Shown here: positions 9,587 to 62,237 of the stretch, piece by piece
How positions within the stretch are numbered: position 1 is the stretch's first letter
Layout of the letters: each line of letters opens with the position of its first letter
Source: Elusimicrobia bacterium CG_4_9_14_3_um_filter_62_55
Lineage (GTDB): Bacteria; Elusimicrobiota; Elusimicrobia; UBA1565
Length of the DNA: 62,341 nt
NCBI GenBank assembly: GCA_002790095.1
Contig: PFUL01000195.1
Location: forward strand, 1-62,341
Direction: 5' to 3'
Notes under the pieces: model-generated
Seen by the model: the letters and a program-made list of their open reading frames with translations, nothing else
Database searches by the model: none
What the model was told of the DNA's origin: nothing
Made by a program: the position numbers and the translations under genes

Positions 9587-9600
9587 GGCGAAAGTGTTGC
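9587..9600 (+). promoter_or_regulatory. sigma-54-type promoter (-24 GG / -12 GC)
   Basis: GG at 9587-9588 and GC at 9599-9600 are separated by exactly 10 bases (GGCGAAAGTGTTGC, then TA). The predicted transcription start near 9612 is 5 nt before the ATG of the tetraheme cytochrome, so the mRNA would have almost no leader. Confidence 0.7.
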
Positions 9601-9616
9601 TAATTAGATAGTAGAT

Positions 9617-10204
9617 ATGAAGATGGGTATCGCGATGTTTGCGGCGTTTGTGGCCCTCGGTCTTTATTTTTCTCAGGCCGCGAAGCACGAATCCCCCGTG
9701 AAAGAGGCCGAAGCCATCCCGAAGGAGTGGTACGATCCCAAACCCGTGCGGCGCATTCGCGGCAAGTTGGAATTCGAAGGCATGGCCTGCACGACCTGCC
9801 ATTCGGAACCTCTCGAAGGCAACCCCAAGGACAAGGGCCAGTTCCACGAAACGATCAAGTTGGAACACGCGGCGCAGAAGAGAAACCGCTTCTGCTTTAA
9901 CTGCCACAACAACAAGAACTTCGACTCCTTCGCCGGCGCGGGCGGAGAGAGGATCGCGTACAAGGACGTCGCCGAACTCTGCTCCAAGTGCCACGGTCCG
10001 ATCTATCGCGATTGGAAGGCCGGCTCGCATGGACGCCGCAGCGGCTATTGGGATTTAAAGCAAGGCAAGCGCGAGGTGCTACAGTGCATCGCCTGCCACG
10101 ATCCGCATTCCCCGATGTTCAAGCCGATGAAGCCTGCCGGCCCTCCTCGAAGGCTGCACGAAATTCCGCACGAACCCAAAGGGGGGCATCCCGATGAGCA
10201 TTAG
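9617..10204 (+). CDS. tetraheme c-type cytochrome (CbcS-like)
   Basis: 195 residues with an N-terminal membrane anchor or signal (residues 3-20) and four haem motifs: CTTCH, CFNCH, CSKCH and CIACH. The gene overlaps the next one by 11 nt and precedes an FeS protein and an NrfD-type membrane subunit. The trio tetraheme cytochrome/FeS/NrfD is the make-up of the Geobacter Cbc4 (CbcSTU) menaquinol:cytochrome oxidoreductase. Here it would take electrons from quinol through the FeS subunit to periplasmic acceptors, or run in reverse. The outer-membrane barrel just upstream suggests an extracellular electron path, but that barrel gene is broken. Confidence 0.85.
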   Translation: MKMGIAMFAAFVALGLYFSQAAKHESPVKEAEAIPKEWYDPKPVRRIRGKLEFEGMACTTCHSEPLEGNPKDKGQFHETIKLEHAAQKRNRFCFNCHNNKNFDSFAGAGGERIAYKDVAELCSKCHGPIYRDWKAGSHGRRSGYWDLKQGKREVLQCIACHDPHSPMFKPMKPAGPPRRLHEIPHEPKGGHPDEH

Positions 10205-11150
10205 CGACGAATCCCCTCCGGAACGGCCGGAACTTCCCGACAGCCGGACCGTGTCGCGCTCCACGTTTCTGCAGGCCGGACTCGCCGCGCTCGGCGCGGT
10301 CGGGGCCACCGCGGCGGCCTTGGAGCCGCTGAAGAAGGTGGACGATTATCCGAGCTTCGAGGAATTCTTCCAGAAGCACTACAAAGAATTGTCCAAGGAA
10401 GAGATGGCCGCCGTACTTGAGCGCACCCGCGTGCGCGTGAAGAAGAAATTCGGAGTTGACGCGACGGTGGGCGACCCGAAGCCGATCGAAGGCGTGGAGT
10501 TCGCGTATGCGCTGAACATCGGCCGCTGCGTGGGCTGCCGCAAGTGCGTGTACGCGTGCATGAAGGAAAACAACCAGTCGCGCGAGCCGCAGGTGCAGTA
10601 CATCCGCGTGCTGAAGATGAAGAAAGGCTCCATCAACGTCGAGTCTTCGCAACACCTCTACGAGGATGAAACGGTTCCGACGAAGGATCACTACTACATG
10701 CCGGTGCAGTGCCACCAATGCCGAAAGGCGCCGTGCGTGAAGGCCTGCCCGGTGCAGGCGACCTGGCAGGAGCCGGACGGCATCATCGCCATCGATTACG
10801 ACTGGTGCATCGGCTGCCGCTACTGCATGGCCGCGTGCCCGTACGGCGCACGCGTGTTCAATTTCGCGGAACCGAAGATCAAGCCCGAGGAAATCAACAC
10901 GAACATGTCCTACCTCGGCAACCGCCCGAAGAAGAAGGGCGTGGTCGAAAAGTGCCATTTCTGCATGCAGCGCACGCGCAAAGGGCAGTATCCCGCCTGC
11001 GTCGAGGTCTGCCCGACGGGCTCTCGAAAATTCGGGAACATCCTCGACCCGGAAAGCGAGATCTCGAAAATTCTCGAGACGAAGCGGGTGTACATCCTGA
11101 AGGAGGAGGTGGGGACGCTGCCGCGTTTCTACTACTATTTCGATGTTTGA
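10194..11150 (+). CDS. Tat-exported 4x[4Fe-4S] ferredoxin-type subunit (CbcT-like)
   Basis: 318 residues. The N-terminus has a weak twin-arginine-like signal (RTVSRSTFLQAGLAALGAVG), which may instead act as a simple anchor. Four cysteine groups follow: CVGCRKCVYAC, CHQCRKAPCVKACP, CIGCRYCMAACP, and CHFC plus CVEVCP, the DmsB/HybA/NrfC arrangement for four cubane clusters. It would wire the NrfD-type quinone site to the tetraheme cytochrome. It overlaps the cytochrome gene upstream by 11 nt and the membrane subunit downstream by 8 nt. Confidence 0.88.
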   Translation: MSISDESPPERPELPDSRTVSRSTFLQAGLAALGAVGATAAALEPLKKVDDYPSFEEFFQKHYKELSKEEMAAVLERTRVRVKKKFGVDATVGDPKPIEGVEFAYALNIGRCVGCRKCVYACMKENNQSREPQVQYIRVLKMKKGSINVESSQHLYEDETVPTKDHYYMPVQCHQCRKAPCVKACPVQATWQEPDGIIAIDYDWCIGCRYCMAACPYGARVFNFAEPKIKPEEINTNMSYLGNRPKKKGVVEKCHFCMQRTRKGQYPACVEVCPTGSRKFGNILDPESEISKILETKRVYILKEEVGTLPRFYYYFDV

Positions 11151-12411
11151 GGAACTCCGCGACTACTCCGTCTTCGTGCTGCGCGCCCTGCGCGAGACGT
11201 TGCTGGGCGACTGGCGCTACTTCGCGTGGATGACCGCGTTGGCTGTCGTCTCGCTTCTGGGCCTCAACGCGTACGCGAAGCAGTTGGCGTACGGGCTCGT
11301 GACCACGGGGATGAGTTCGGAGGTCTCCTGGGGTCTCTACATCGCCAACTTCACCTTCCTGGTGGGAATGGCCGCGGCGGCGGTGATGCTGGTGATTCCG
11401 GCCTACGTCTACGGGGATCACGACCTGCACGACGTGGTGATTCTGGGCGAGCTGCTTGCGGTCGCGGTGATCGTCATGTGTCTGCTGTTTGTGACCGTGG
11501 ATCTCGGGCGGCCGGACCGCTTCACGCACATCATCCCCGGAATCGGGAAGTTCAACTGGCCGATGTCGATGCTGTCGTGGGACGTGATCGTCCTCAACGG
11601 CTATCTCGCGCTCAACGCGCATATCTGCGGCTACCTGATTTATTGCGAGTACAAAGGGACCAAGCCCACGCGATTGTTCTACATCCCGTTCGTGTTCGTC
11701 GCGATCTTCTGGGCGATCAGCATTCACACGGTCACCGCATTCCTGTACGTGGGGCTCGGCGGGCGGCCGTACTGGAATTCCGCGATCATTGCGCCCCGCT
11801 TTTTGGCCTCGGCGTTCACAGCGGGACCCGGGTTCATCATCATCGCGCTGCAGGTGATCCGCCGTTTTACCGACTACAAGGTGAAGGATGCGGTGCTGTT
11901 AAAGCTGCGCATGATCGTGCAGGTGTCGATGATTATCAACGTCTTTCTCCTGTTCTGCGAGCTCTTCAAGGAGTTCTATACCGACTCGGCCCATGTGGCA
12001 TCGGCGAAATATCTGTTTTTCGGGCTGCATGGCTACAACGGGCTGGTCCCGTGGATCTGGACGGCGATGGCGCTTAACACCGTCGCGCTGGGGCTGCTGA
12101 TGCTGCCCGCGTCCAAAAGCTTGAAGTACCTGGACCTCGCCTGCGCGCTTTCGATCATCGGCATCTGGATCGAGAAGGGGATGGGCCTGATCATCCCTGC
12201 TTTCATCCCGACCCCGGTCGGCGACATCGTCGAATACAATCCGACCCTTAACGAATGGTTGGTCTGCGCCGGGATATGGGCGTTCGGGATGCTGCTCTAC
12301 ACCGTTTTCCTTAAGATTACGATCCCGGTCCTTACCGGGAGGCTGAGGCGCGAAAGCGGCGCTGGCTGGAAATTATCCCCAATACTCGGTTCAAACCCAG
12401 TCGGTGAATAA
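11143..12411 (+). CDS. NrfD/PsrC-type integral membrane quinone subunit (CbcU-like)
   Basis: 422 residues with about ten hydrophobic spans and the family feature SWGLYIANFTFLVGMAAAAV near residue 60. NrfD-type proteins bind quinone and pass electrons to an attached FeS subunit without haem. It is the last gene of the three-gene module and ends 12 bp before a convergent gene. The final 20 residues after TGRLRR are hydrophilic and unusual, perhaps a drifted tail. Confidence 0.88.
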   Translation: MFEELRDYSVFVLRALRETLLGDWRYFAWMTALAVVSLLGLNAYAKQLAYGLVTTGMSSEVSWGLYIANFTFLVGMAAAAVMLVIPAYVYGDHDLHDVVILGELLAVAVIVMCLLFVTVDLGRPDRFTHIIPGIGKFNWPMSMLSWDVIVLNGYLALNAHICGYLIYCEYKGTKPTRLFYIPFVFVAIFWAISIHTVTAFLYVGLGGRPYWNSAIIAPRFLASAFTAGPGFIIIALQVIRRFTDYKVKDAVLLKLRMIVQVSMIINVFLLFCELFKEFYTDSAHVASAKYLFFGLHGYNGLVPWIWTAMALNTVALGLLMLPASKSLKYLDLACALSIIGIWIEKGMGLIIPAFIPTPVGDIVEYNPTLNEWLVCAGIWAFGMLLYTVFLKITIPVLTGRLRRESGAGWKLSPILGSNPVGE

Positions 12412-12423
12412 CTTCTTCCAAGC

Positions 12424-13106: not shown

Positions 13107-13121
13107 CAATCCCGCATCCTA

Positions 13122-13135: not shown

Positions 13136-13163
13136 AAAGGAGAAACACTATTTCCGAATCGGT

Positions 13164-13628
13164 TTACTGCGCGCCCCGTTCATAGAGCCCGAGCATTTGA
13201 AAGCGCGTGGCATCCAGGCGTTCGGAGGTCGCCCGAACCAAACGGACTAGAACCTGATAGCCTAGTTCGTGATCCTCCTGCAGTAGGTTCCGTACGGCGT
13301 CGGCTTCGAAGACGACCAGTTCCGTGGGCCGAAGGGCGCGGGCGTCGAAACGCCAGAGATAGGGCTCGAACAACCAGGAGCAGCCGAGCAATTTCCCCGC
13401 TTCCAGCGTTTGTATCGGGGCGACCCGGGCCCCCGGTTGTTCGCTCTCGAGCATCACGCTCCCGGAATGCACGAGATAAAAACGGTCGGCGGGCTGCTTT
13501 TCTCGAAAAATATAATTGTCGGCATAAACTCGGGTCGGCCGGCAAAGGCGCGAGAGTTTCGTGAGGTGATCGGGGTGAAGGTCCGTCGAAAACGGGTGCG
13601 ATTTTAGAAGGCTCAGCATGGAATCCAT
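13164..13628 (-). CDS. cyclic-nucleotide-binding-domain protein without HTH
   Basis: 154 residues with the Crp/Fnr-type cupin fold: YIFREKQPADRFYLVHSGSVMLE near residues 38-60, GKLLGCSWLF, and a long C-terminal helix ending RFQMLGLYERG. There is no DNA-binding domain; the protein stops where the dimer helix of Crp would end. ATG 13628 is chosen over the TTG at 13646 because the sigma-54-type promoter at 13643-13656 predicts transcription from about 13631. It sits directly downstream of an NtrC-type activator gene, so a sensory or modulating role is plausible. The ligand is unknown. Confidence 0.8.
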   Translation of the reverse strand: MDSMLSLLKSHPFSTDLHPDHLTKLSRLCRPTRVYADNYIFREKQPADRFYLVHSGSVMLESEQPGARVAPIQTLEAGKLLGCSWLFEPYLWRFDARALRPTELVVFEADAVRNLLQEDHELGYQVLVRLVRATSERLDATRFQMLGLYERGAQ

Positions 13629-13642
13629 ACTCAGCCTGTTAA

Positions 13643-13656
13643 GCAACGGAAATGCC
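13643..13656 (-). promoter_or_regulatory. sigma-54-type promoter for the cNMP-binding-fold gene
   Basis: Minus strand GGCATTTCCGTTGC followed by TTA: GG and GC are 10 bases apart. The predicted start near 13631 is 3 nt ahead of ATG 13628. It fixes the start codon of the gene downstream. Confidence 0.68.
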
Positions 13657-13662
13657 GCGTGA

Positions 13663-15054
13663 TTACTTCCTTTTAAGTTTTTTCTTTTTTTCCGTCGCCT
13701 CTGATTTCGGGGCGCCGTATTCCTTCAGTTTTCTCCACAGCGTATTGCGTCCAATCCCGAGGGCCTTCGCCGTTTCCACCTGATTTTCGCCGCAGGCCGC
13801 GAAGACGCCGAGGATATGTTCGCGTTCGACCGAGTCGAGCGGGCGGATCGTCGGTCCGGCCCCGCCTGCGGTTCTGACTTCCGGCGGCAAATCATCGAGG
13901 CCGATTTCTTCGTTCGGGGCCAGGATCACGGCGCGTTCGATCGCGTGCTCGAGTTCGCGAACGTTGCCGTGCCAGCGATACGCCTTCAGCGCCTCGGCCG
14001 CTTGAGTCGAATACCGGCAGGCTTTCGACTTGTGCTTGCCGTGGGCGAGCTTCAAGAAGCGTTCGGCAAGAGGGAGGATGTCGTCGGGGCGATCGCGCAG
14101 CGGTGGAATTTCAATCGGAAAGACGTTGAGGCGATAGTAGAGATCTTCGCGGAAGCCGCCGATCTGCATTTCGGCGCGAAGGTCCTTGTTGGTCGCTGCG
14201 ACGACGCGGGCGTTGATCTTTATGTTCCGGTTCTCTCCGACTCGGCGGACTTCCCCTTCCTGCAGCGCCCGCAGCAGCTTGACCTGAAGGGGAGGGGACA
14301 TTTCTCCGATTTCGTCGAGGAAAATCGTGCCGTCGCGCGCTTCTTCGAAAAGCCCGCGCTTTTGGGTTACGGCTCCGGTGAACGCGCCGCGCGCGTGCCC
14401 GAAGAGTTCGCTTTCCAGCAGTCCTTCGGGAAGGGCGCCGCAATTCACCGCGACGAACGGATGGTCGCGGCGCGAGCTCGCCTCGTGGATGGCGCGGGCG
14501 ATCAATTCCTTGCCGGTGCCGGACTCGCCCTGAATCAACACCGACGCGTCGGTTCCGCCGACTTTCCGAACGAGATCCAGAATGTTGTGAAAGGCGGAAC
14601 TGGCGTAGACGATGTTGTCGAGGCTGAACTTCCCGCGAACCTGGGCCCGAAGCTGCTCGACTTCCCGCAGCAGGCGCTGACGCTCCAGGGCCTTTTCGAT
14701 GCTGATCTGGAGGGCCTCGGGTTCGATGGGTTTGGTCAGATAATCGAAGGCGCCTCCCTTCATCGCGCGGACCGCGGAATCGATGGAGCCGTGACCGGTG
14801 ATGACGATCACCTGGGCCTCGGGAGAGCGGCGGCGGGCCTCCGCGAGAACTTTAAACCCGTCGACGGGCTTCATTTTAATGTCGGTGAGTACCAAGTCGA
14901 ACGGTCCCTTCGTGAGAGCCGCGCAGGCCTTCTCACCGTCGGGGACCGCCGTGACCTCCAGGCCCAGTCGCTTAAGTTCCAACGAGGTGACGGTGCGTTG
15001 GGAGAGATCGTCCTCCGCGTAGAGGACGGTCGCTTTGAAGGTTGTTTCGGTCAT
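13663..15054 (-). CDS. NtrC-family sigma-54 activator (REC-AAA+-Fis)
   Basis: 463 residues. Receiver domain 1-120 with acidic pocket EDD at 14-16, phosphoacceptor D58 and K108. AAA+ domain with Walker A GESGTGKE at 176-183, the sigma-54-contacting GAFTGA loop at 223-228 and a [11 protein letters not shown] Walker B. C-terminal Fis-type helix-turn-helix ([17 protein letters not shown]) and a lysine-rich tail. GAFTGA is intact, so it should activate sigma-54 holoenzyme when phosphorylated by the adjacent kinase, whose gene overlaps by 4 nt. It is the obvious activator for the GG-N10-GC promoters in the window. Confidence 0.95.
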
Positions 15055-16685
15055 ACGGCCTCCGAGTTGCGAAGCGGGATCTGGATGGAAAACAAGGCGC
15101 CGCCGGACGCAGCGGATTCGACGCCGATGCGGCCTCCGTGGGCGGAGACGACGCGTTCGGCAACCGGCAGTCCCAAGCCGGTGCCTCGTTCCTTCGTCGT
15201 GTGAAAGGGTTCAAAAACGGCCTCGCGGTGCCCGTCCGGGATCCCGGGTCCGTTGTCTTCGATCTCGACTAAGAGATGCCCGTCGCGGGCGCGGGTTCGT
15301 ACGGTCAGGATTCCTTTGCCGTCCATGGCCTGGAGGGCGTTGATTACGATGTTCCAGAAAACCTGCCGCAATTGGTCCCCATCGGCCAAAACGAGCGGAA
15401 GGGCCTCATCGAGTTTGACGCGAAATTCCACGCCGGCTGCCAATGAGTCGTCCGCCGCGGTCAATTTTATGATCTCGGAAAGGACGGCGTTGATGTCGGC
15501 GTCGGCCAAGTGCAATTCTCGCGGGCGCGCGTACTGGAGAAACTGGGAGAGCGTGTCGCCGAGACGCTTGCTTTCCTTCCCGATGACTTCGGTGAGCGTG
15601 TCGTGGTCTTCATCGGAAAGATCATGGCGGTTGAGACTGCGCGCCGCCGTGACGATCGAACCGAGCGGGTTTCGAATTTCATGCGCCATTACAGCCGCCA
15701 TCGATCCGACGGCGGCGAGGGATTCGCTTTTAGCGAGGCGGCGCTGGAGTTCTTCCTGTTCGGAAAGATCCACCGCGCTCGAGACGAAGCCGACGATGCG
15801 GCCGCGATCGTCCAGCACCGAGGTGATGGAAAGCAACATCGGAACCTCTTCCCCCGCTTTCGTGCGGTTGATGACGCGTCCGCGCCAGAACCCTTTCGAC
15901 GGGTCGAGGATGTCGCCCCACAGCCGTTTGTACATCGTTGGAGACGAGTGGGGCGAGCGGACGACGCGAGGCGTGTTCCCGATCACCTCGTCCCGGCGGA
16001 ATCCGAAGCGCTTGAGGAAGGCCTCGTTGACTTCCTGGATGAATCCGTCCCGATTCGTGTAAAACATGGAGTCGTTCGAGTTCTGAAACGCCTGGTAAAA
16101 CGCGAGCGCACGACGTTCCAGGAGATGCTGGGCTGTCAAATCCCGGCCGATCAGCAGCATGATGTCCTCGTCCGGCCCCGAGGACATCGGCGTGGCTCGG
16201 ATTTCGACCTCGATGGGTTTTTGGTCCCGTCCGAGGAGCATCGTGACCCGGGTCGCGCGGCCGTGGTGCCGGGCGGAGCGGAAAAGGCGTTCGAGCGCGC
16301 CTTCCTCTTCGCGGGAGGCGAGCAAAGACGCGAAGGCGCAATCCCTCAATTCGTCGCGTCCGCGCCCCAGCAGACGGGCCGCACCCGCATTGACATCAAG
16401 CACCTTCCCCGTACGGCAGTCGTGAATCAAAATCATGTCCGAGGCGGTGTCGTAGAGGCGGCGATACAAGGCGGCCTCATCGGCCAATCCGGCCTCGGCG
16501 CCGATGGTGAGGGCTTTGCGCGCGGAGGCCGATCCAACCAGCAGCGCCATTCCCAACGCGCCGATCCAAGGGAGATTCGATGCAGCCCCACCGGGGATTT
16601 CATGAAGCAGGAGGGCAAAAATGATCAAGCCGCCTCCGGTCCACGCGCTCCAACGCAATTTTGATTTCAGCGAATCTGCCCGCAT
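15051..16685 (-). CDS. PAS-domain sensor histidine kinase
   Basis: About 544 residues from ATG 16685 (an in-frame ATG at 16724 is possible). Two membrane spans within the first 60 residues are joined by a very short loop, so sensing is probably cytoplasmic. Two PAS domains follow (DTASDMILIHDCRTGKV and NSNDSMFYTNRDGFIQEV), then HisKA with the phospho-accepting MAHEIRNPLGSI, and HATPase_c with NALQAMDGKG, DNGPGIP and GTGLGL. It overlaps the response regulator by 4 nt and is divergent from the RpoN-like gene. The signal is not evident; no haem- or flavin-binding residues stand out. Confidence 0.92.
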   Translation of the reverse strand: MRADSLKSKLRWSAWTGGGLIIFALLLHEIPGGAASNLPWIGALGMALLVGSASARKALTIGAEAGLADEAALYRRLYDTASDMILIHDCRTGKVLDVNAGAARLLGRGRDELRDCAFASLLASREEEGALERLFRSARHHGRATRVTMLLGRDQKPIEVEIRATPMSSGPDEDIMLLIGRDLTAQHLLERRALAFYQAFQNSNDSMFYTNRDGFIQEVNEAFLKRFGFRRDEVIGNTPRVVRSPHSSPTMYKRLWGDILDPSKGFWRGRVINRTKAGEEVPMLLSITSVLDDRGRIVGFVSSAVDLSEQEELQRRLAKSESLAAVGSMAAVMAHEIRNPLGSIVTAARSLNRHDLSDEDHDTLTEVIGKESKRLGDTLSQFLQYARPRELHLADADINAVLSEIIKLTAADDSLAAGVEFRVKLDEALPLVLADGDQLRQVFWNIVINALQAMDGKGILTVRTRARDGHLLVEIEDNGPGIPDGHREAVFEPFHTTKERGTGLGLPVAERVVSAHGGRIGVESAASGGALFSIQIPLRNSEAV

Positions 16686-16754
16686 TCTAAAAAGAATATA
16701 GCAAATTCGCTTTTGGAACAGCATGACCCATTTTGGCGCAGGGTTTGTACGATT

Positions 16755-16768
16755 GGCATAATTGTTGC
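16755..16768 (+). promoter_or_regulatory. sigma-54-type promoter of the RpoN-like gene
   Basis: GGCATAATTGTTGC followed by TA, preceded by T: the closest copy in the window to TGGCAC-N5-TTGCW. The predicted start near 16780 is 5 nt before ATG 16785. It suggests that the sigma-54-like factor is made from a sigma-54 promoter, i.e. positive autoregulation. Confidence 0.75.
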
Positions 16769-16784
16769 TATTAATATTGATGCG

Positions 16785-17897
16785 ATGGAACAAAAAATGC
16801 GGATGGATCAATCGTTGAAGCCCGAGAGCGTGCAGGTGCTCCAGGGGAGACTCGCGGCGGCAAAATGGCTCTCGATGTCCGAACCGGAAGTGGCTCGGGA
16901 AGCGTCGGATATCGAAGGGGACCCTTTGTTTCGCGAGTTAGTCTATGGGGATCAGGGCCGATCCCCGCTGGTCAAGCGCCGACGCTGGCCCGCGGCGGAA
17001 CTTCATCAGGGGTTTTACGAACTGAAAGAAGAACTGGCGGCAGGAGACGGTTCGGGAGACATTCACGATCTGATCGAAAAGCACGAGGACCTGGTCGGCT
17101 GCATCCGAAAGATCGGCCAAGTGAACTTCGAGCGATACTTCCTGGTCGGTGATACCGATGAAAGTTTTGAAAGCGTCTGCGAAATCGTCGGAGTGAAGCA
17201 GGACGTCGGGCGGAAAATTCTGGATCTTGTTCTTGAGATTGGGGCCCGTTCCGAATTCTTCCGTCCGGGACGCGTGCCGGAGACGGCGGGGGTGCGATAC
17301 AGCTGCATCGCCGAGATCGAACGCGATCCTCGGGAGACCGACGGGTTGTTCTTTCGTTTCTTCGCTCCGCATTGGGCCCGGGGGCGCTACGAGATCCAAT
17401 ACGATCGCCTCGAGGATTGGAAAAAGCATCGCGACTTGACCGTGGGTGAGCGCCGAGATCTGAGAAAACTCCTCAAACGCATTGAGATGCTCAACATGCG
17501 CCAGGACACGCTGTTTCAGATTCTCTCCCGGTCCTCGACGGAGCAGAGCGTGTTTCTGCGCAGCCGCCGCCGCGAACGCCTGCGCCCGCTCAGCCTTCGC
17601 GAATTGGCGCGCCGCATCGGCGTCGCGCCCAGCACCGTGAGCCGGGCGATCTCCCGCCGCTCCGTCGTGCTTCCGTGGGGGGAAGAGGTCCCGCTGAAGT
17701 ATCTGCTCACGGGGCAGCGCGAGGTGCTTCTTGAAATCTTGAAGGAGTGGCGCAGAACGGGTATCATGCGCCCCGGAATCACCGACGAGTCCTTGATGGT
17801 CCGTTTGGCGGAAGAGGCGGGTATCACGGTCTCCCGCCGGACGGTCAACGAGTGTCGGCGCAAACTGACTAGCGTCTCAGAGGAGGTCGTGCTATGA
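16785..17897 (+). CDS. divergent RpoN (sigma-54)-like factor
   Basis: 370 residues against about 480 for typical RpoN. The N-terminus (SLKPESVQVLQGRLAAAKWL, then SEPEVAREASDIEGDPLF) follows the region I pattern, but with most of the usual glutamines and leucines replaced. The acidic region II is essentially absent. A reduced core-binding part follows. The C-terminal DNA-binding part is recognisable: LRELARRIGVAPSTVSRAI near residues 268-290 matches the RpoN helix-turn-helix, and SRRTVNECRRKL near 349-360 matches the RpoN box (ARRTVAKYRE). ATG 16785 is chosen from the promoter position; the upstream GTG at 16713 is not supported. Its start overlaps no gene, and its stop overlaps the CBS gene. 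Whether it replaces or supplements a canonical RpoN cannot be told from this window. Confidence 0.8.
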   Translation: MEQKMRMDQSLKPESVQVLQGRLAAAKWLSMSEPEVAREASDIEGDPLFRELVYGDQGRSPLVKRRRWPAAELHQGFYELKEELAAGDGSGDIHDLIEKHEDLVGCIRKIGQVNFERYFLVGDTDESFESVCEIVGVKQDVGRKILDLVLEIGARSEFFRPGRVPETAGVRYSCIAEIERDPRETDGLFFRFFAPHWARGRYEIQYDRLEDWKKHRDLTVGERRDLRKLLKRIEMLNMRQDTLFQILSRSSTEQSVFLRSRRRERLRPLSLRELARRIGVAPSTVSRAISRRSVVLPWGEEVPLKYLLTGQREVLLEILKEWRRTGIMRPGITDESLMVRLAEEAGITVSRRTVNECRRKLTSVSEEVVL

Positions 17898-20270: not shown

Positions 20271-21036
20271 GCTTATGAGAACGATACTCGATCAAGGACT
20301 GATACCGAAAGAGCACGGCGCGTGGGCGCTTTTGGCCGCGTGCCTCATCGTGGGGACCGCGGCTTCCGGTTCCGAATTCGGCGGAGTCGCCCTGTTGTAC
20401 GCGGCAGGGGTGTTCACTCTGTTTCTCTCCCGTCCGGGTTTCGAACGGACGCTCAAGCGGGGCCTGTCGGCGCACGCGACCGGCTTCGCGTTGGCCTGCT
20501 CCGCGGCCGGTTCGCTGTTTTTCCTTGGCTACGCGGCGATGCTGGGCCGTTGGGAGCTCTTGTGGTGGGTGGTTCCCTTGGTCGTTTGCGCGGCGCTGCG
20601 CGAAGTTCTGGTCCGTTATGTCGGCGCGCGTTCCTTGTCCGCGCATGCCGCTTCGGTGTTGGCGATGGCGCTTCTCATTCCGGCGACGGCTCACGCGTTG
20701 TCGGGACGGCTCGATCCCCGCGCATTGGCCCTGGGCGCCGCCGGGTTCGCGTATTTTTTCGGCCCGGTCTTCATCGTCCGCGCGGTGCTGCAGCGCACCG
20801 AAGCGCTGCATGCGGCGCTCTACTTCGGAGTCTGCGCGCTGGCCGCCGTGGTCGCGAGTGCCGTCGGCCTGATCCCGTGGATCCTGGCCGTTCCGTTCGG
20901 AGCCCGCGCCTGTGAAGCGTGGGGTTGCCCGCCGGCCGTGAAAAACGGCGGTCCGGTGGATCTGAAGGCGGTGGGCTGGTCGGAAGTAGGCTGGACCACG
21001 CTGTTTCTCGCCTGCGTTTTCCTCGCCAACGGCTGA
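20248..21036 (+). CDS. YwiC-like integral membrane protein
   Basis: Up to 262 residues with seven or more hydrophobic spans and the family opening LIPKEHGAWALL. Two starts are possible: ATG 20248, one base after AGGAGG and overlapping the previous stop, or ATG 20275, giving 253 residues starting MRTILDQGL. The second begins closer to the conserved motif. Function of YwiC-like proteins is unknown; in Bacillus the gene lies by nitrate-respiration genes, which agrees with the theme here. The 3' end contains the promoter of the next operon. Confidence 0.8.
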   Translation: MSRPRRHKLMRTILDQGLIPKEHGAWALLAACLIVGTAASGSEFGGVALLYAAGVFTLFLSRPGFERTLKRGLSAHATGFALACSAAGSLFFLGYAAMLGRWELLWWVVPLVVCAALREVLVRYVGARSLSAHAASVLAMALLIPATAHALSGRLDPRALALGAAGFAYFFGPVFIVRAVLQRTEALHAALYFGVCALAAVVASAVGLIPWILAVPFGARACEAWGCPPAVKNGGPVDLKAVGWSEVGWTTLFLACVFLANG

Positions 21037-21044
21037 GGATTTGC
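21031..21044 (+). promoter_or_regulatory. sigma-54-type promoter of the E1/E2 operon
   Basis: GGCTGAGGATTTGC followed by TAAAA: GG-N10-GC, with TTTGC in place of GTTGC. It overlaps the last codons and stop of the YwiC-like gene. The predicted start near 21056 is directly before the GTG at 21057, so the transcript would be leaderless. Confidence 0.6.
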
Positions 21045-21056
21045 TAAAACACATCC

Positions 21057-22988
21057 GTGGATGACCGGTCCGAAGACCGACTGCGCGCGGCGCTGTTGAT
21101 TCGCGCGGTGGAGACGCGCCTGCTCTCGCTATACGCGGAGGGACGCCTCAACGGCACGGTCCATACCTGCATCGGGCAGGAATACTCCGGCATCGCGGTC
21201 GCGGAGCATCTCCGGCCTGAGGATCGGGTTGTTTCCAACCACCGCTGTCACGGTCATTTCATCGCCCGGACCGGCGACGCGGAAGGCCTGATCGCCGAAC
21301 TGATGGGACGCCCGCAAGGCGTCTGCGGGGGACGCGGCGGCAGTCAGCACCTCCATAAAGACGGGTTTTACTCCAACGGCGTCCAAGGCGGGATCGCTCC
21401 GGTCGCGACGGGGATGGCGTATGAACTCTTCCGACGCGGACAGGACGGGATCGTCGTCGTGTTTTTGGGAGACGGCACGTTGGGGGAGGGCGTCGTCTAC
21501 GAGAGCTTCAATTTGGCGTCGAAATGGAGTCTGCCCGTTTTGTTTGTTTTGGAGAACAACCGCGTCGCGCAGAGCACGCCGCAGAGGCAAACTTTGGCCG
21601 GCGGCATAGACGCCCGCGCGGCGGCGTTCGGCATCGCCACAGGTTCCGGCGTGACCTGGAAGCCCGAGGCGTTGATCACCGCCGCCGGAGAAGCTGTTGC
21701 CCGCGTGCGCGCCGGGAAGGGCCCGTTTTTCCTCCGCATCGACACCGACCGATTGAACGCCCATTCGAAAGGCGACGACGACCGTCCCGCCGCCGAAGTG
21801 GCGAAACTGCGCGAACGCGACCCGCTGCACGCGATTCGCGCGGCCGAGCCGGAACTGTACGACCGCCTGGAGGAAGAAGCCCGCCTCCGGGTTGAAAAGG
21901 CGGTGGAAGCCGCCGAAAAGGTCCCCGAAGGCGGTGAGGACTTCGAAGACGCCGACGGCTGGCGCGGGGTGTCCTGGTCTGCGGCCCCCGGCGGCGAAAA
22001 AGCGCGTGCGGTCGTGAGGATCAACCAGGCGCTTGCCGACGCGCTGAAGGCCGACGAGCGCGTGTCTCTGTTCGGCGAGGATTTGGAAGATCCCTACGGC
22101 GGCGCGTTCAAGGCGACGAAGGGGTTGAGTTCGGCGTACCCGGGCCGGGTGCGCAACACGCCGATCAGCGAGGCGGCAATCGTCGGGATGGCCAACGGCG
22201 CCGCGCTGGCCGGCGGAAGGCCCGTGGTCGAATTGATGTTCGGCGACTTTATGGCGCTGGCGGCCGATCAGTGGATCAATCACGCCTCCAAGTTCGGATA
22301 CATGTACGGCGATTCGGTTGCGGCTCCCTTCGTCTTAAGAACCCCGATGGGCGGGCGGCGCGGTTACGGACCTACGCACAGCCAGAGCCTCGAGAAGCAT
22401 TTTCTCGGCCTTCCCGGGACGCGGGTGCTGGCGCTGAACGCCCGGTTCGATCCCCGGGAATTTTACAAACGCGTTTTCGCGTCGCTCGACCGTCCGACCT
22501 TGGTTTTGGAGAACAAACTGCTCTACGGCCGCCCGCTCGACGCGCCGCTCCCGGCGGGATTTTCTCTCGAAATCTCCGACGAGGCGTTCCCGACGATTCG
22601 GCTTTCCCCCGACGCGGGGGCGGATCTCACGCTGTTTTGCTGGGGGGACGCGCTCGATGAGGCCGAACGCGCGGCCGCGCGTCTGTTTGAAGAGGAGGAG
22701 ATTTTCGTCGAGATCATTTGTTCGACGGCCTTGTATCCCTTCAACGCGGCGCCGCTCGCCGAATCGGTCTCGCGCAGCGGTCGTCTCTTGACCTTCGAGG
22801 AAGGGCTCTCGTTCTCTTCTCTGAGCGCCGAGGCCGCGGCCGCGCTCGCGGAGCGCGGCGTTCTAAAACAATTTTCCCGGCTTGCGAGCGCGCGGCGACC
22901 GATCCCCTCTTCGAAGGTGCTTGAGGTGCGCTCGCTGCCCGATGCTGCGGCGATCGTCGCCCGCGCCAAGGAGCTTCTCGATGCCTGA
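21057..22988 (+). CDS. fused 2-oxoacid dehydrogenase E1 (alpha+beta), TPP-dependent
   Basis: 643 residues from a GTG. Residues 1-300 are E1 alpha-like, with the TPP motif GDGTLGEGVVYESFNLASKW and VLFVLENN. Residues 320-643 are E1 beta-like, with VSLFGEDLEDPYGGAFKATK and TPMGGRRGYGPTHSQSLE. Alpha and beta are usually separate genes or fused in a few lineages; acetoin, branched-chain and biosynthetic enzymes belong here. No E3 is present. Linked to a short E2 and a small carrier-like protein, so a role in delivering a two-carbon or branched acyl unit is as likely as catabolism. Confidence 0.88.
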   Translation: MDDRSEDRLRAALLIRAVETRLLSLYAEGRLNGTVHTCIGQEYSGIAVAEHLRPEDRVVSNHRCHGHFIARTGDAEGLIAELMGRPQGVCGGRGGSQHLHKDGFYSNGVQGGIAPVATGMAYELFRRGQDGIVVVFLGDGTLGEGVVYESFNLASKWSLPVLFVLENNRVAQSTPQRQTLAGGIDARAAAFGIATGSGVTWKPEALITAAGEAVARVRAGKGPFFLRIDTDRLNAHSKGDDDRPAAEVAKLRERDPLHAIRAAEPELYDRLEEEARLRVEKAVEAAEKVPEGGEDFEDADGWRGVSWSAAPGGEKARAVVRINQALADALKADERVSLFGEDLEDPYGGAFKATKGLSSAYPGRVRNTPISEAAIVGMANGAALAGGRPVVELMFGDFMALAADQWINHASKFGYMYGDSVAAPFVLRTPMGGRRGYGPTHSQSLEKHFLGLPGTRVLALNARFDPREFYKRVFASLDRPTLVLENKLLYGRPLDAPLPAGFSLEISDEAFPTIRLSPDAGADLTLFCWGDALDEAERAAARLFEEEEIFVEIICSTALYPFNAAPLAESVSRSGRLLTFEEGLSFSSLSAEAAAALAERGVLKQFSRLASARRPIPSSKVLEVRSLPDAAAIVARAKELLDA

Positions 22989-24015
22989 CGCCAAACCGGT
23001 CCGAGTTCCGCAGGAAACGGTCAACGACGAGCGCGTGCGGCTCGTACGCTGGCGCGTCGAGGAGGGCGCCCCGGTGGAGCCGGGGGCGGTGCTCGCGGAG
23101 ATCGAAACGAGCAAATCCGTTTTGGAAGTCACCGCGGGCGAAGGCGGATTTCTGCGCCGCGCCGCGAGCGAGGGAGATTGGGTCCCGGTCGGCGGCGTCT
23201 TTTGCTATTTGACCGTGCATGCCGACGATCCGGTCCCGGCGGCGGAGGCAGGCGCCAAGACCGAAGGGCCGGCGTTCAGCCGCAAGGCGCGAGCGCTGCT
23301 GGAGAAGGAAGGGGTCGATCCCGCCGCGTTTTCGGGAATGGGCATGGTCCGGGAAGAGGATGTGCGCCGGCATCTCGCCTCGGCGTCCGCGAAGGGCGTG
23401 CGCCGCGAACCGCTTTCCGCCCGGAAGCGCTCGGAGAACGCCGCGCTCTCGGGCGGGGGGGCGAACGCGCTTCGCTCTTTGGCGGCGCTGCGGTGTTCGG
23501 AGGAGGCGTACCGCCGGGCGGTTGAAAGAGCCCCCGCCTTCGAGGCGACCCCGTCCGGTTTGATCCTGTTTGAAGCGGCTCGGACCTTGAAGGAGTTTCC
23601 GTTGTTCAACGCCTATTACGCGGACGGCGACGCCGCCTATTACGACGGCGTCAACGTGGGGTTCGTCGTCGACGGCGACCGCGGCCTGCGGGTTCCGGTG
23701 ATTCACGGCGCGGACTCGAAAACCGAGGACGAGACGGCGCGGGAGATTCAGGATCTCCTGCTTGCGTATCACGAGGATGAATTAAACGTCGAACGGCTTT
23801 CCGGAGGAACCTTCACGATCACCGACCTTTCCGGAGAGGGAGTGACGCGCTTCGATCCGCTGATCAACGCGGCGCAATCGGCGATTCTCGGAGTCGCCGC
23901 GCCGGAAGGGGGCTCGTTTGAACTCTGCCTGGCGTTCGATCACCGGCTGCACGAAGGCCGATCCGCGGCGGCGTTTCTCCATGTGCTGAAGAGCCGAATC
24001 ACGGCCCGGGCATGA
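22981..24015 (+). CDS. short E2-like acyltransferase with lipoyl domain
   Basis: 344 residues; the start overlaps the E1 stop by 8 nt. A lipoyl domain spans residues 1-80 with the lipoyl-lysine motif ETSKSVLEV. A peripheral-subunit-binding segment follows (FSRKARALLEKEGVDPAAF) and then a catalytic domain of about 200 residues. The active-site motif reads FDHRLHEG where E2 enzymes have HRxxDG, so the catalytic histidine is present but aspartate has become glutamate. The length is below the usual 400 or more. The acceptor could be a carrier protein rather than CoA. Confidence 0.82.
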   Translation: MPDAKPVRVPQETVNDERVRLVRWRVEEGAPVEPGAVLAEIETSKSVLEVTAGEGGFLRRAASEGDWVPVGGVFCYLTVHADDPVPAAEAGAKTEGPAFSRKARALLEKEGVDPAAFSGMGMVREEDVRRHLASASAKGVRREPLSARKRSENAALSGGGANALRSLAALRCSEEAYRRAVERAPAFEATPSGLILFEAARTLKEFPLFNAYYADGDAAYYDGVNVGFVVDGDRGLRVPVIHGADSKTEDETAREIQDLLLAYHEDELNVERLSGGTFTITDLSGEGVTRFDPLINAAQSAILGVAAPEGGSFELCLAFDHRLHEGRSAAAFLHVLKSRITARA

Positions 24016-24233
24016 AATCCCTTAAGGAAATCGTCGCGGGTCTCGCCTCCGTGCCGGTCGAGGAGATCGACGCCTTTTTCGCGCTCGACCGCCCGGGCTT
24101 GGACTCGTCTTTGAAGCGCGCGGTGCTCATCGCGTCGATTCGCAAGAACCTCGGCAAGCATTGCATGGAAGCCGGCCGCGCGAAGACCTTCAGCGAGCTC
24201 GAAGACGCCGTCGCGAAAGCCCCGCCCGCTTGA
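24012..24233 (+). CDS. small acyl-carrier-like protein
   Basis: 73 residues, ATGA-coupled to the E2 gene. The pattern PVEEIDAFFALDRPGLDSS followed by the helix LKRAVLIASIRKNLG and a final ELEDAV aligns with carrier proteins (DPEEI...GLDSL...ELVMALEEEFG). The serine after aspartate would carry phosphopantetheine, with DSS instead of DSL. The family assignment rests on this pattern only. Its place after E1 and E2 recalls the NapB/NapD and QncN/QncL systems, where pyruvate-dehydrogenase-like proteins load a two-carbon unit onto a carrier protein. Confidence 0.55.
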   Translation: MKSLKEIVAGLASVPVEEIDAFFALDRPGLDSSLKRAVLIASIRKNLGKHCMEAGRAKTFSELEDAVAKAPPA

Positions 24234-28055: not shown

Positions 28056-28070
28056 GTGTCCTCTTTAAAA

Positions 28071-28084
28071 GCAACGGAAGCGCC
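28071..28084 (-). promoter_or_regulatory. sigma-54-type promoter of the Rrf2-porin operon
   Basis: Minus strand GGCGCTTCCGTTGC followed by TTTT, preceded by T. GG and GC are 10 bases apart. The predicted start near 28059 is 4 nt before ATG 28055, which would leave the AGAGGA upstream of the start mostly untranscribed. Confidence 0.7.
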
Positions 28085-29505: not shown

Positions 29506-29519
29506 GCAACGAAATTTCC
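29506..29519 (-). promoter_or_regulatory. sigma-54-type promoter of tnaA
   Basis: Minus strand GGAAATTTCGTTGC followed by CCTAAG. The predicted start near 29494 is the base before the GTG at 29493, so the mRNA would be leaderless. Its -24 GG is only two bases from that of the divergent promoter at 29522. Confidence 0.68.
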
Positions 29520-29521: not shown

Positions 29522-29535
29522 GGCCAGGCTGTTGC
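29522..29535 (+). promoter_or_regulatory. sigma-54-type promoter of the tatA-mobA-moaA-napA operon
   Basis: GGCCAGGCTGTTGC followed by TTTAAA; GG-N10-GC. The predicted start near 29547 leaves a 17-nt leader that contains GCGGAGG, a good ribosome site for tatA at 29564. Back to back with the tnaA promoter around a shared CCATGG centre. Confidence 0.7.
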
Positions 29536-29563
29536 TTTAAAACGGATGCGGAGGTCTTAATTT

Positions 29564-29725
29564 ATGCTGCCAAATCTTGGTACGGGAGAATTGTTGATCT
29601 TACTGGCGCTCGGACTGCTCGTTTTCGGGGCTAAAAAGGTTCCTGAAATCGCGCGTTCGATCGGGAAGTCCGTCAATTCTTTCAAGGCGGGAATGCGAGA
29701 AGAGGCGGACCCCGAAAACCGATGA
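29564..29725 (+). CDS. tatA: Tat translocase subunit TatA
   Basis: 53 residues: an N-terminal membrane helix (GTGELLILLALGLLVFGAKK), the conserved FG hinge, and an amphipathic helix VPEIARSIGKSVNSFKAGMR. Short but complete for the TatA/E family; the usual long acidic tail is reduced to EEADPENR. TatA forms the export channel for folded proteins, needed for the Tat-signal molybdoenzymes and FeS proteins in this window. Preceded by GCGGAGG; its stop overlaps the mobA start (ATGA). Confidence 0.93.
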   Translation: MLPNLGTGELLILLALGLLVFGAKKVPEIARSIGKSVNSFKAGMREEADPENR

Positions 29726-34170: not shown

Positions 34171-34184
34171 GGCGCGAGTGTTGC
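34171..34184 (+). promoter_or_regulatory. sigma-54-type promoter of the nxr operon
   Basis: GGCGCGAGTGTTGC followed by GTTAAT, preceded by CT. GG-N10-GC. The predicted start near 34196 gives a 73-nt leader ending in GGGAGG before ATG 34269, the only long leader among the eleven good copies. Confidence 0.7.
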
Positions 34185-41091: not shown

Positions 41092-41105
41092 GGAATTTAT
41101 GTTGC
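41092..41105 (+). promoter_or_regulatory. sigma-54-type promoter of the napGH-act supercluster
   Basis: GGAATTTATGTTGC followed by TATA, preceded by T. The predicted start near 41117 is directly before ATG 41118, so the first gene would be leaderless. All genes from 41118 to 60445 run in this direction with overlaps or short gaps, so much of the cluster may depend on it. Confidence 0.7.
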
Positions 41106-41117
41106 TATATAGATTAC

Positions 41118-45138: not shown

Positions 45139-45755
45139 TGAATTTCGAGAAGGCTTGTTCCCGCCGCAATTTCTTTTCGACCCTCGCCCGACAGGCGGGG
45201 GAATTCGCCGTGGGGTTGGTGGACGGTGCCGCCCAGGCGTCCCGGGCCTTTCAGGCCGAGGCGGCCCCTGTCCCCGCAGCCCCGCCTGTCGCTTGGGTGC
45301 GCCCTCCCGGTGCGCTGCCGGAGGCCGACTTCCTGAGCGCATGCACGCGTTGCGACGATTGCATAAAAGCTTGCCCTCATTTGGTGATCCGCAAAGCGGG
45401 CATCGAGGTGGGAAAAGATGTTGCAACTACTCCGATCATCGTCCCCGGAGACAATTCTTGCCGATTTTGCGACGGATTCCCTTGCATCCAGGCCTGCGCG
45501 AGCGGAGCCTTACGGCTTCCGAATTCGGACATAAAGATCCGAATTGGAACAGCCGTCGTCCGGGAACCCGCCTGCTATTCGGTTCAGAAGCAGCCTTGCG
45601 ATTACTGCCAGACCTATTGTCCGGAAACGGAAAAGGCGATCCGGGTTTCCGGTCCCGGATCGGCCCCCGCGGTAAACGCCCAACTGTGCACCGGTTGCGG
45701 GCAATGTGCCGAGATTTGTCCGACCGGCTGCATCACGGTGGTTCGGCTTTCATGA
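45138..45755 (+). CDS. NapF/NapG-like four-cluster ferredoxin
   Basis: 205 residues, ATG 45138 overlapping the previous stop by 1 nt. A twin-arginine-like start (CSRRNFFSTLARQ) is followed by a spacer and clusters CTRCDDCIKACP, CRFCDGFPCIQAC, CDYCQTYCP and CTGCGQCAEICP. Paralogue of the protein at 41118 (both carry PPGALPE then a first CxxC group). It probably serves the YHS-NapH-like membrane protein as its exported or cytoplasmic electron partner. Confidence 0.87.
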   Translation: MNFEKACSRRNFFSTLARQAGEFAVGLVDGAAQASRAFQAEAAPVPAAPPVAWVRPPGALPEADFLSACTRCDDCIKACPHLVIRKAGIEVGKDVATTPIIVPGDNSCRFCDGFPCIQACASGALRLPNSDIKIRIGTAVVREPACYSVQKQPCDYCQTYCPETEKAIRVSGPGSAPAVNAQLCTGCGQCAEICPTGCITVVRLS

Positions 45756-60808: not shown

Positions 60809-60829
60809 TTCTTACTCCATACCGACTCT

Positions 60830-61090: not shown

Positions 61091-61098
61091 CGCGCGCG

Positions 61099-61136: not shown

Positions 61137-61151
61137 GGCGCATCCGGGACG

Positions 61152-62177
61152 CTAAAACACCGGAACGATCGTCTCCAGATCTTCCTCCGCGACCTCGAAA
61201 CCCGTTAGCCCGACTTCCGGCATAGCGGGGAATTCGATCCCGTACGCCTCGACGGTCTTCTTTACCTTGAGCATCGCGTTGCGCCAGGCATCTTCACGGG
61301 CCTTCAATGAAATGATGCCGAGCCCGCCGGATTGAGCGGCGTCCTGCAGCGTATTGTGATACTCCAGGAAGGTATCCGGCAGTTCCCAGAACTTTCCGGG
61401 AAACGGCTTGAACAGAATCAACGAGAGAAAAATAAACCCCGCCCTAAGCTGTTTGGTGATGAAGTCCTTTTGCTCCTGCGGCAGGTTGGGGAAGGTGCGC
61501 TTGGTCAGATACAAGGCCATGCGCGCGTGCCGGCTTTCGTCGCGACTGACAAGCTTAAAGACCTCCCGGTATACCGGAATCGACGCGGCTTTCCCCATTT
61601 CAGAGAACAAGGTCGTCGCCGCCACCTCGCCCATTAGAAAGGAAGTGAACATCACCGCAAACGGATACTTGTCGAAGGCCTTCACATAGCCTTCCCAGTA
61701 GCGCGCGCCGTTGTGGTACGCCCACTGGATGTTGTTGTAGGCGCCCTTTTCGAGCGCCGTTTTTGGAGTCCACTCGAGCGGACCGAACGGGTTTCCCGGA
61801 AGGCAGATCATTGTCGACTTCCGGCAGATCTCCTCGTGGTTCAATTCGTCACGCAAAATCGTCGAGAAGCATTTGCGCACGCCGTCTTCTTCTTTGTTCT
61901 TGAACATCTCAATGAGCGCGTGCGCGAAGACCGGAGGGGCCGCGGCGTCGAAGATGCAGAGAATCGAAAACCAATACCCGATCGCGAGGCGCTCCTCGGC
62001 GGATAGTTTCGCGTCGCGCAACGTGTCCCAGGGGAGCGTTTCCGGGTCCCAGAGTTGAGCCTTTGCGAGTGCGAAGAGGTCATAGGTGATTTTCGGGCTT
62101 TCGGGCCATGAAATCGGGAAAACGTTGAGGGGGTCTATTTTGGGGGGAAAAGAGAATTTCAAGGAATTTTCGTTCAT
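61152..62177 (-). CDS. ferritin-like diiron protein (R2/R2lox/AurF type)
   Basis: 341 residues from ATG 62177, with GGAGG upstream. LFALAKAQLWDPETLPWDTL resembles R2-type ribonucleotide reductase N-termini. Two iron-site pairs are visible: DELNHEE (ExxH near 120) and SRDESRHARMA (ExxH near 225). A further glutamate lies in LMGEVAA. The overall pattern fits a diiron oxidase/oxygenase of the R2-like or AurF-like class rather than true R2, which would need a large subunit; none is here. The substrate is unknown. It is transcribed from a sigma-54-type promoter, like the respiratory genes. Confidence 0.72.
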   Translation of the reverse strand: MNENSLKFSFPPKIDPLNVFPISWPESPKITYDLFALAKAQLWDPETLPWDTLRDAKLSAEERLAIGYWFSILCIFDAAAPPVFAHALIEMFKNKEEDGVRKCFSTILRDELNHEEICRKSTMICLPGNPFGPLEWTPKTALEKGAYNNIQWAYHNGARYWEGYVKAFDKYPFAVMFTSFLMGEVAATTLFSEMGKAASIPVYREVFKLVSRDESRHARMALYLTKRTFPNLPQEQKDFITKQLRAGFIFLSLILFKPFPGKFWELPDTFLEYHNTLQDAAQSGGLGIISLKAREDAWRNAMLKVKKTVEAYGIEFPAMPEVGLTGFEVAEEDLETIVPVF

Positions 62178-62208
62178 TTTTTGCCTCCGAGAAGCTGCAT
62201 TTTGTTTA

Positions 62209-62222
62209 GCAACACAAAGACC
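62209..62222 (-). promoter_or_regulatory. sigma-54-type promoter of the diiron gene
   Basis: Minus strand GGTCTTTGTGTTGC followed by TAAAC, preceded by T. The predicted start near 62197 leaves a 20-nt leader with a GGAGG ribosome site before ATG 62177. Divergent from the copy at 62224. Confidence 0.68.
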
Positions 62223-62223
62223 A

Positions 62224-62237
62224 GGCCATACTGTTGC
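62224..62237 (+). promoter_or_regulatory. divergent sigma-54-type promoter
   Basis: GGCCATACTGTTGC followed by TATG. The predicted start near 62249 is 2 nt before an ATG at 62251, the same leaderless geometry as elsewhere. The gene it should drive is cut almost at once by intron-like sequence. Confidence 0.62.

What the first reader, a model, noticed from the sequence alone, without database searches (positions are those of the whole stretch)
9587..62237. A conserved GG-N10-GC promoter drives most transcription units: a sigma-54-like regulon
Eleven good copies (9587, 13643, 16755, 21031, 28071, 29506, 29522, 34171, 41092, 62209, 62224) and one weak copy (13122) lie directly upstream of first genes. 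Spacing between GG and GC is exactly 10 in all. Ten of the eleven share GTTGC, in nearly all cases YGTTGC, on the -12 side, which is more than the sigma-54 consensus asks for. The genes behind them cover respiration, molybdenum cofactor supply, Tat, FeS regulation and amino-acid breakdown. This looks like one regulon covering tens of kilobases.
Basis: partly seen in the sequence, partly recalled or inferred. Interest (0 to 1): 0.88.

Follow-up and report, generated by a model that had tools for sequence, protein, structure and literature searches.

The report
Sigma-54 promoters abutting start codons
An uncultured bacterium, probably an Elusimicrobia relative, appears to run its breathing and amino-acid-breakdown genes from sigma-54 promoters, many placed so close to the gene that the message should start almost at the start codon; this is predicted from sequence and has not been measured.

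Summary
The motif is real: 11 of 11 sites read GG-N10-GC, 10 of 11 GTTGC. Strict GGN6YGTTGCW: 11 in the window, 1.75 expected; 79 in the genome, 32 of them within 120 nt upstream of a start, permuted motifs 20 of 684. The window encodes a likely reader: a divergent sigma-54 (RpoN-A, 16785-17897) behind such a site, beside an NtrC-type activator and PAS kinase. The sigma-54 reading is supported.

New: many -12 elements lie 12-20 nt before a start codon, predicting leaders of 0-8 nt: 18 of 79 own sites (permuted 11 of 684), 8 of 20 in relative G002 (5 of 432), 0 of 7 in a genome without rpoN, 0 of 17 in one with only RpoN-B. Shine-Dalgarno-like sequence: 6 of 30 near sites, 19 of 27 farther ones. 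Back-to-back pairs recur.

Against: an RpoN-A-only sample showed 0 of 11; genome counts do not track rpoN; no enhancer site found. Transcript ends are inferred. Site 13122 is rejected; 'most transcription units' is about 10 of 19 (hand count).

The parts
16785..17897 (+). rpoN-A: divergent sigma-54 (370 aa), C-terminal DNA-binding part and SRRTVN RpoN-box-like end; orthologs suggest the start may be 16797 or 16803
13663..15054 (-). NtrC-type enhancer-binding protein: receiver, Sigma54_activat with GAFTGA, HTH_8
15051..16724 (-). PAS-HisKA-HATPase histidine kinase, likely partner of the activator (adjacent, overlapping genes)
9587..9601 (+). sigma-54 promoter of the multihaem cytochrome / Fe-S / NrfD operon 9617-12411; C of GC 17 nt before ATG 9617
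13642..13656 (-). sigma-54 promoter of cNMP-binding protein 13164-13628; C 15 nt before ATG
16755..16769 (+). sigma-54 promoter of rpoN-A itself; C 17 nt before ATG 16785 (29 or 35 nt if a later ATG is used)
21031..21045 (+). sigma-54-like site (TTTGC) before 2-oxoacid dehydrogenase operon 21057-24233; C 13 nt before GTG (by coordinates), overlapping the end of the preceding gene
28070..28084 (-). sigma-54 promoter of the rrf2 operon 28055-24269; C 16 nt before ATG; 4 of 11 fetched orthologs have the motif at 18 nt
29506..29519 (-). sigma-54 promoter of the beta-eliminating lyase 28114-29493; C 13 nt before GTG; left half of a back-to-back pair
29522..29536 (+). sigma-54 promoter of tatA 29564-29725 (29 nt, Shine-Dalgarno-like sequence present); right half of the back-to-back pair, 2 bp between the GG elements
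34171..34184 (+). sigma-54-like site 85 nt (by coordinates) before the molybdopterin oxidoreductase gene 34269
41092..41106 (+). sigma-54 promoter of the Tat-signal Fe-S operon beginning at 41118 (MPVSRRDFL); C 13 nt before ATG
62208..62222 (-). sigma-54 promoter of the rubrerythrin-domain gene 61152-62177 (32 nt, Shine-Dalgarno-like sequence present); left half of a back-to-back pair
62224..62238 (+). right half of the second back-to-back pair (1 bp between GG elements); only a 28-codon frame follows before the window ends

Best explanation
The GG-N10-GC sites are -24/-12 promoters read by the window's own divergent sigma-54 (RpoN-A), opened by an NtrC-type activator, most likely the neighbouring one, when its PAS kinase signals. 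They control respiration, cytochrome and molybdenum enzyme supply and amino-acid breakdown, and rpoN-A itself. Unlike textbook sigma-54 promoters, a large part of them are leaderless or nearly so: the -12 element sits 12-20 nt (mostly 13-17) before the start codon, so that RNA begun at the canonical +1 has a leader of about 0-8 nt and is translated without a Shine-Dalgarno sequence. Other members have ordinary leaders with Shine-Dalgarno sequences. Shown: motif, its position, its coupling to start codons, the genes. Inferred: which sigma factor and which activator, the transcript starts, and the activation step.
For: Motif upstream of starts: 32 of 79 own hits vs 20 of 684 permuted; G002 15 of 20 vs 15 of 432. 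Start codon 12-20 nt after the C: own 18 of 79 vs 11 of 684; G002 8 of 20 vs 5 of 432; eight other genomes near rpoN 6 of 18 vs 2 of 157; eight rpoN-A-only genomes near rpoN 4 of 17 vs 2 of 111. YGTTGCW without GG at spacing 10: near starts 2 of 98 own, 0 of 29 in G002; other spacings: 8 of 100 own, but all 8 also have GG at spacing 10. Of 57 sites with a start at 12-60 nt, 30 lie at 12-20, 11 of them at exactly 14. In the window, GG-Nx-TTGC near called starts: 6 at spacing 10, 0-1 at every other spacing from 6 to 16. SD-like sequence 6 of 30 vs 19 of 27 (p 1.7e-4). No near-start or paired sites in the genome without a sigma-54 match (G014) or with only RpoN-B (G010). Rrf2 orthologs in G024, G025, G032, G055 (one genus) keep GG and YGTTGC at 18 nt while the bases between vary. 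The lineage has a general leaderless habit: TANNNT at -12 before start codons, 22 vs mean 3.3 own, 31 vs 3.0 in G002, 16 vs 2.8 in G014. Homolog of the window activator in the fetched rpoN-A stretch of 16 of 18 genomes. GAFTGA in all five strong activators.
Against: No transcript end is measured. In rpoN-A-only genome G027 a 366 kb sample had 0 of 11 hits near starts, 0 of 11 within 120 nt upstream, and no pairs. The 4 near sites of the rpoN-A-only group all come from G018 and G023, one genus, and look like two orthologous pairs. Counts of GGCN5YGTTGCW per genome do not track rpoN content: own genome 30 vs 33 for the reversed control, and G047, with no sigma-54 match, 26 vs 10. G052, no sigma-54 match, has the motif 46 nt before its rrf2; four of 11 fetched rrf2 orthologs show no motif. 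B-only G010 also has an activator homolog (48%) in the stretch holding its rpoN-B. Pfam lists no other sigma-54 domain in RpoN-A up to E 10, and the fold could not be predicted (mean pLDDT 39). My gene caller gives a small bonus to Shine-Dalgarno starts, which favours the SD contrast. The rpoN-A start itself is ambiguous.
Confidence: 0.72

Rival explanations
1. Ordinary sigma-54 regulon with ordinary leaders: the near-start sites are artefacts of wrong start codons, true starts being further downstream.
For: Start calls are from a home-made caller; several sites have alternative downstream starts; three rpoN-A orthologs of the same family start 25-28 nt from the motif; some sites at 12-20 nt rest on alternative, not called, starts.
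Against: Permuted motifs scored with the same start sets give 11 of 684 vs 18 of 79; in G002 5 of 20 hold for called starts alone vs 2 of 432; the 41118 frame begins with a Tat signal MPVSRRDFL 13 nt after the motif; four Rrf2 orthologs keep 18 nt; SD-like sequence is mostly missing at these starts.
Confidence: 0.15
2. The motif is read by the second sigma-54 (RpoN-B, C188) or by both paralogs alike.
For: Own genome and G002 hold both genes; both have the DNA-binding domain and an RpoN-box-like end.
Against: B-only G010: 0 of 17 hits near or within 120 nt upstream of starts, no pairs; A-only genomes G018 and G023 show near-start sites and G018, G020, G023, G046 show pairs; rpoN-A's own promoter carries the motif in 23 of 30 loci. 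The A-only G027 sample was also empty, so this is not decisive.
Confidence: 0.2
3. The sites are binding sites of a regulator (for example the cNMP-binding or Rrf2 protein of the window), not promoters.
For: Regulators of this sort are encoded in the window.
Against: Fixed spacing of 10, orientation towards the gene, sigma-54 and activator in the same locus, and no tie to starts in the sampled genome without sigma-54.
Confidence: 0.05
4. Chance enrichment of a GTTGC-containing pattern in AT-richer spacers between genes.
For: Whole-genome counts are not above the reversed-pattern control.
Against: Permutations of the same bases lie inside genes in 584 of 684 and upstream in only 20 of 684, against 35 and 32 of 79 for the motif.
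Confidence: 0.02

Closest known systems
Sigma-54 (RpoN) regulons with NtrC-type activators
   Same: GG-N10-GC promoters, sigma-54 gene, AAA+ activator with GAFTGA next to it; C. difficile SigL likewise controls amino-acid breakdown (PMC7438776, passages); C. jejuni sigma-54 sites lie 8-13 nt before the mapped start (PMC3847290, passages)
   Different: sigma-54 is short and divergent; -12 element extended to YGTTGC; many promoters abut start codons; back-to-back pairs
Leaderless genes with the -10 element adjacent to the reading frame (Deinococcus-Thermus, PMC12340547, start of abstract and passages)
   Same: promoter core placed so that the transcript begins at the start codon; TANNNT at -12 is seen here too
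   Different: here the same layout is also used by sigma-54 promoters; the only sigma54 match in that paper's text is in its reference list
Species with several rpoN genes (Bradyrhizobium, Rhodobacter; PMC3162934, passages)
   Same: two sigma-54 paralogs in one genome
   Different: paralogs here are about 31% identical; how alike the known pairs are was not checked

Membership tests
Sigma-54 (RpoN) protein family | sigma-54 DNA-binding domain (PF04552) over the curated cut-off | tested here: met
   56.7 bits, cut-off 22.8
Sigma-54 (RpoN) protein family | C-terminal homology with solved sigma-54 including the RpoN-box end | tested here: met
   profile of 18 homologs matches Aquifex RpoN 5ui5, positions 161-347, E 1.1e-17, ending SRRTVN vs ARRTVAKYR
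Sigma-54 (RpoN) protein family | recognisable activator-interacting and core-binding domains | tested here: inconclusive
   neither listed by Pfam up to E 10 for six proteins; N-terminal part alignable among orthologs but too divergent to assign; fold prediction failed
Sigma-54 promoter | GG and GC 10 bases apart upstream of genes | tested here: met
Sigma-54 promoter | transcript starts about 12 nt after GC | not testable with these tools
   only indirect: called starts peak at 13-19 nt; nearer than 12 nt only -15 and -3 in own DNA and 11 in relatives
Sigma-54 promoter | activation by an AAA+ activator with GAFTGA | tested here: inconclusive
   gene present with GAFTGA; activation not tested; no shared enhancer site found
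Leaderless gene | leader under about 8-10 nt and no Shine-Dalgarno sequence | tested here: inconclusive
   predicted leader 0-8 nt; SD-like in 6 of 30; no transcript data

The most novel reading that the evidence does not exclude
A sigma-54 system shared by much of an order in which the activator-gated promoter is fused to the start codon, giving leaderless messages, and in which divergent operons use back-to-back -24 elements 1-29 bp apart, so close, at least in the tightest pairs, that only one holoenzyme can sit at a time, making a direction switch for respiration and amino-acid breakdown.
Probability: 0.3. Interest if true: 0.75.

Novelty: new variant of a known kind. Interest (0 to 1): 0.6.

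Why it matters
Sigma-54 promoters are normally thought of with leaders and Shine-Dalgarno sequences (recalled). If they can abut the start codon, an ATP-gated, tightly closed promoter is joined directly to leaderless translation, removing any control through the leader. It gives a lineage without genetics a readable regulon map, makes start-site prediction testable base by base, and offers a sequence-based way to annotate starts and regulons in this group. The back-to-back pairs ask whether two sigma-54 holoenzymes exclude each other.

Tried and rejected
Tried without result: counts of GGCN5YGTTGCW across 57 genomes do not separate genomes by rpoN content. Fold prediction of RpoN-A from one sequence was useless (mean pLDDT 39), so no fold search was made. 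A search for palindromic enhancer sites in the 230 nt upstream of 66 promoters gave only weak GC-rich dyads. Rfam at gathering scores gave no match in the window. The G027 (rpoN-A only) sample showed no near-start sites, no upstream sites and no pairs. The single genome-contig scan returned two loci.

Rejected: site 13122 as a promoter (no gene behind it); the chance explanation for own genome and G002; RpoN-B as sole reader. The spacing controls first looked bad at N11 (5 of 16) and N13 (3 of 30); all 8 are the same sites with a second GG.

Literature: searches 'sigma-54'+'leaderless' (8 papers), 'leaderless mRNA'+'RpoN', 'sigma54'+'leaderless', 'Elusimicrobi'+'rpoN', 'Elusimicrobi'+'sigma54', 'Elusimicrobi'+'leaderless', 'divergent promoters'+'sigma54'+'back-to-back', 'sigma54'+'bidirectional promoter', 'Elusimicrobi'+'anaerobic respiration'+'groundwater' (22 of which 10 listed). 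From the listings and the passages seen in ten papers I saw no leaderless class of sigma-54 promoters and no back-to-back class. No paper was read whole and no supplementary table was read, so single cases may exist there (for example among the 112 sigma-54 starts of PMC3616915).
Full report
Setting. The window is contig C155 of a 4.31 Mb, 202-contig genome. The closest named relative of its sigma-54 protein found is on an 'Elusimicrobia bacterium' contig (58% identity), so I take it for an Elusimicrobia-lineage genome; this rests on that one protein, not on rRNA. A more distant match (36%) lies on a contig labelled Deltaproteobacteria.

Checking the observation. All eleven sites read GG-N10-GC and 10 of 11 read GTTGC. 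Strict GGN6YGTTGCW has 11 matches in the window against a shuffle mean of 1.75, and 79 in the genome. I fetched DNA around all 68 matches outside the window and 20 further contigs that hold no strict match as background, and called genes with my own codon-usage script. Of 79 hits, 35 are inside genes and 32 within 120 nt upstream of a start on the same strand; permutations of GTTGC within the pattern give 584 and 20 of 684. The raw genome count is not high (79 against 114 for the pattern read backwards): the signal is in position. Three strict window matches are in coding sequence and site 13122 has no gene behind it.

The window encodes a sigma-54 at 16785-17897 with the motif in front of it, divergent from a receiver-AAA+-HTH_8 activator and a PAS kinase. 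The protein is divergent: Pfam sees only the DNA-binding domain of sigma-54; a profile of 18 homologs matches solved Aquifex RpoN over the C-terminal half. A second, about 31% identical sigma-54 lies on C188. Five genes with strong Sigma54_activat matches exist among 9 matches, all five with GAFTGA. A homolog of the window activator lies in the fetched rpoN-A stretch of 16 of 18 genomes (not in G004, nor in G020 where the contig ends). It also lies near the homolog in L042 and, at 48%, in the stretch of G010 that holds rpoN-B. The motif (C/T, G/A allowed before TTGC) stands upstream of rpoN-A in 23 of 30 loci L011-L040, own included, by my count; it is missing in L015, L016, L025, L026, L029, L037 and in L030, whose contig starts inside the gene.

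Regulon. In the window the sites precede a multihaem cytochrome/NrfD operon, a cNMP-binding protein, rpoN-A, a 2-oxoacid dehydrogenase, an rrf2 operon, a beta-eliminating lyase, tatA, a molybdopterin oxidoreductase, a Tat Fe-S operon and a rubrerythrin-domain protein. Outside, one search lists 28 genes near other sites; I scanned 20. Families: hemerythrin (3), molybdopterin oxidoreductase, ResB, cytochrome c, a urate-oxidase N-terminal domain, glutamyl-tRNA reductase, POR, acyl-CoA dehydrogenase, three PLP enzymes; also phosphonate-binding, caspase-like and enolase, which do not fit the theme; four had no family at E 1e-8. A lyase paralog on C69 lies 41 nt behind a site. The set fits respiration, haem supply and amino-acid breakdown.

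Position relative to start codons. With C of GC as -12, the canonical +1 is 12 nt later. Own genome: 18 of 79 hits have an in-frame start codon 12-20 nt after the C, against 11 of 684 permuted (p 4e-12). G002, sampled without regard to the motif except that its two rpoN contigs were chosen: 8 of 20 against 5 of 432 (p 3.5e-9). Eight other genomes near rpoN (G003, G004, G005, G007, G015, G030, G037, G038): 6 of 18 against 2 of 157. Eight genomes with one sigma-54 match, type A, near rpoN: 4 of 17 against 2 of 111 (p 0.003), all four in G018 and G023 of one genus. YGTTGCW lacking GG at spacing 10 is near starts in 2 of 98 (own) and 0 of 29 (G002); other spacings give 8 of 100 own, but all 8 also have GG at spacing 10. 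Among 57 sites with a start 12-60 nt away, 30 are at 12-20, with 11 at 14. Shine-Dalgarno-like sequence is present in 6 of 30 near sites and 19 of 27 others; my caller's small bonus for such sequences favours this contrast. Called starts nearer than 12 nt are rare: -15 and -3 in own DNA, 11 in relatives. Of 11 fetched rrf2 orthologs, four (G024, G025, G032, G055, one genus) keep the motif 18 nt before ATG with different bases between GG and YGTTGC, three have it at 46, 48 and 52 nt or more, and four show none.

Controls by genome. G014, without any sigma-54 match, has 0 of 7 near sites and 1 of 7 upstream; G010, with only RpoN-B, 0 of 17 and 0 of 17. Both still show TANNNT at -12 before starts (16 vs mean 2.8; 19 vs 3.2), so leaderless layout under sigma-70 looks general and the sigma-54 version appears to follow rpoN-A. 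Against this, the A-only G027 sample is empty (0 of 11), and G047 and G052, without sigma-54 matches, have a raised count or one upstream motif; incomplete genomes (90 and 89%) could explain the latter two.

Back-to-back pairs. Using GGN6Y[GA]TTGC, two divergent sites with GG elements 1-29 bp apart: 2 of these pairs in the own DNA, both in the window, 3 in G002, 7 in other relatives (G018, G020, G023, G038, G046), 0 in G014, G010 and G027; 11 permutations together gave 3, 1 and 0 for the first three sets and 0 and 1 for G014 and G010. Face-to-face pairs are not enriched (1 in own DNA, 1 in its permutations). Eleven of 12 lie outside called genes and 8 of 12 have a start within 215 nt on both sides. 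Two holoenzymes probably cannot both fit at the closest pairs (recalled footprint sizes), so exclusion is likely but untested.

Known background. Leaderless layouts with the -10 next to the frame are described for Deinococcus-Thermus (PMC12340547, start of abstract and passages). C. jejuni sigma-54 motifs lie 8-13 nt upstream of mapped starts (PMC3847290, passages). Elusimicrobium minutum is stated to lack sigma-54 (PMC3162934, passages). I found no description of a leaderless sigma-54 class in nine searches (listed under Tried and rejected); supplementary tables were not read.

Noticed in passing
own loci L043-L122 and window; G002, G014, G010, G027 samples: TANNNT peaks at -12 before start codons (22 vs mean 3.3 among 297 own first genes; 31 vs 3.0 in G002; also highest at -12 in G014, G010, G027), the mark of widespread leaderless sigma-70 transcription; in the mixed sample L123-L142 the peak is at -13/-14 (8 and 7 vs 1.3) and the window alone has too few.
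   Followed up: partly
L019, L023, L024, L028, L032, L034, L036, L039, L040 and L035, upstream of rpoN-A: In other families of the order the rpoN-A promoter is followed 12-14 nt after GC by GGAACA-like sequence and then GCCA, an inverted partner of TGGC...TTGC on the other strand; role unknown.
   Followed up: no
L042: An rpoN-A homolog (36%) with a homolog of the window activator (46%) nearby lies on a contig labelled Deltaproteobacteria: transfer or mislabelled genome.
   Followed up: no
window 45138-45752: A gap in my gene calls holds homology to the 41118 Fe-S protein (45294-45722), so a gene is missed by my caller or broken there.
   Followed up: no
L083:3001-3026: Two overlapping sites face to face share GTTGCAAC; likely chance.
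   Followed up: no
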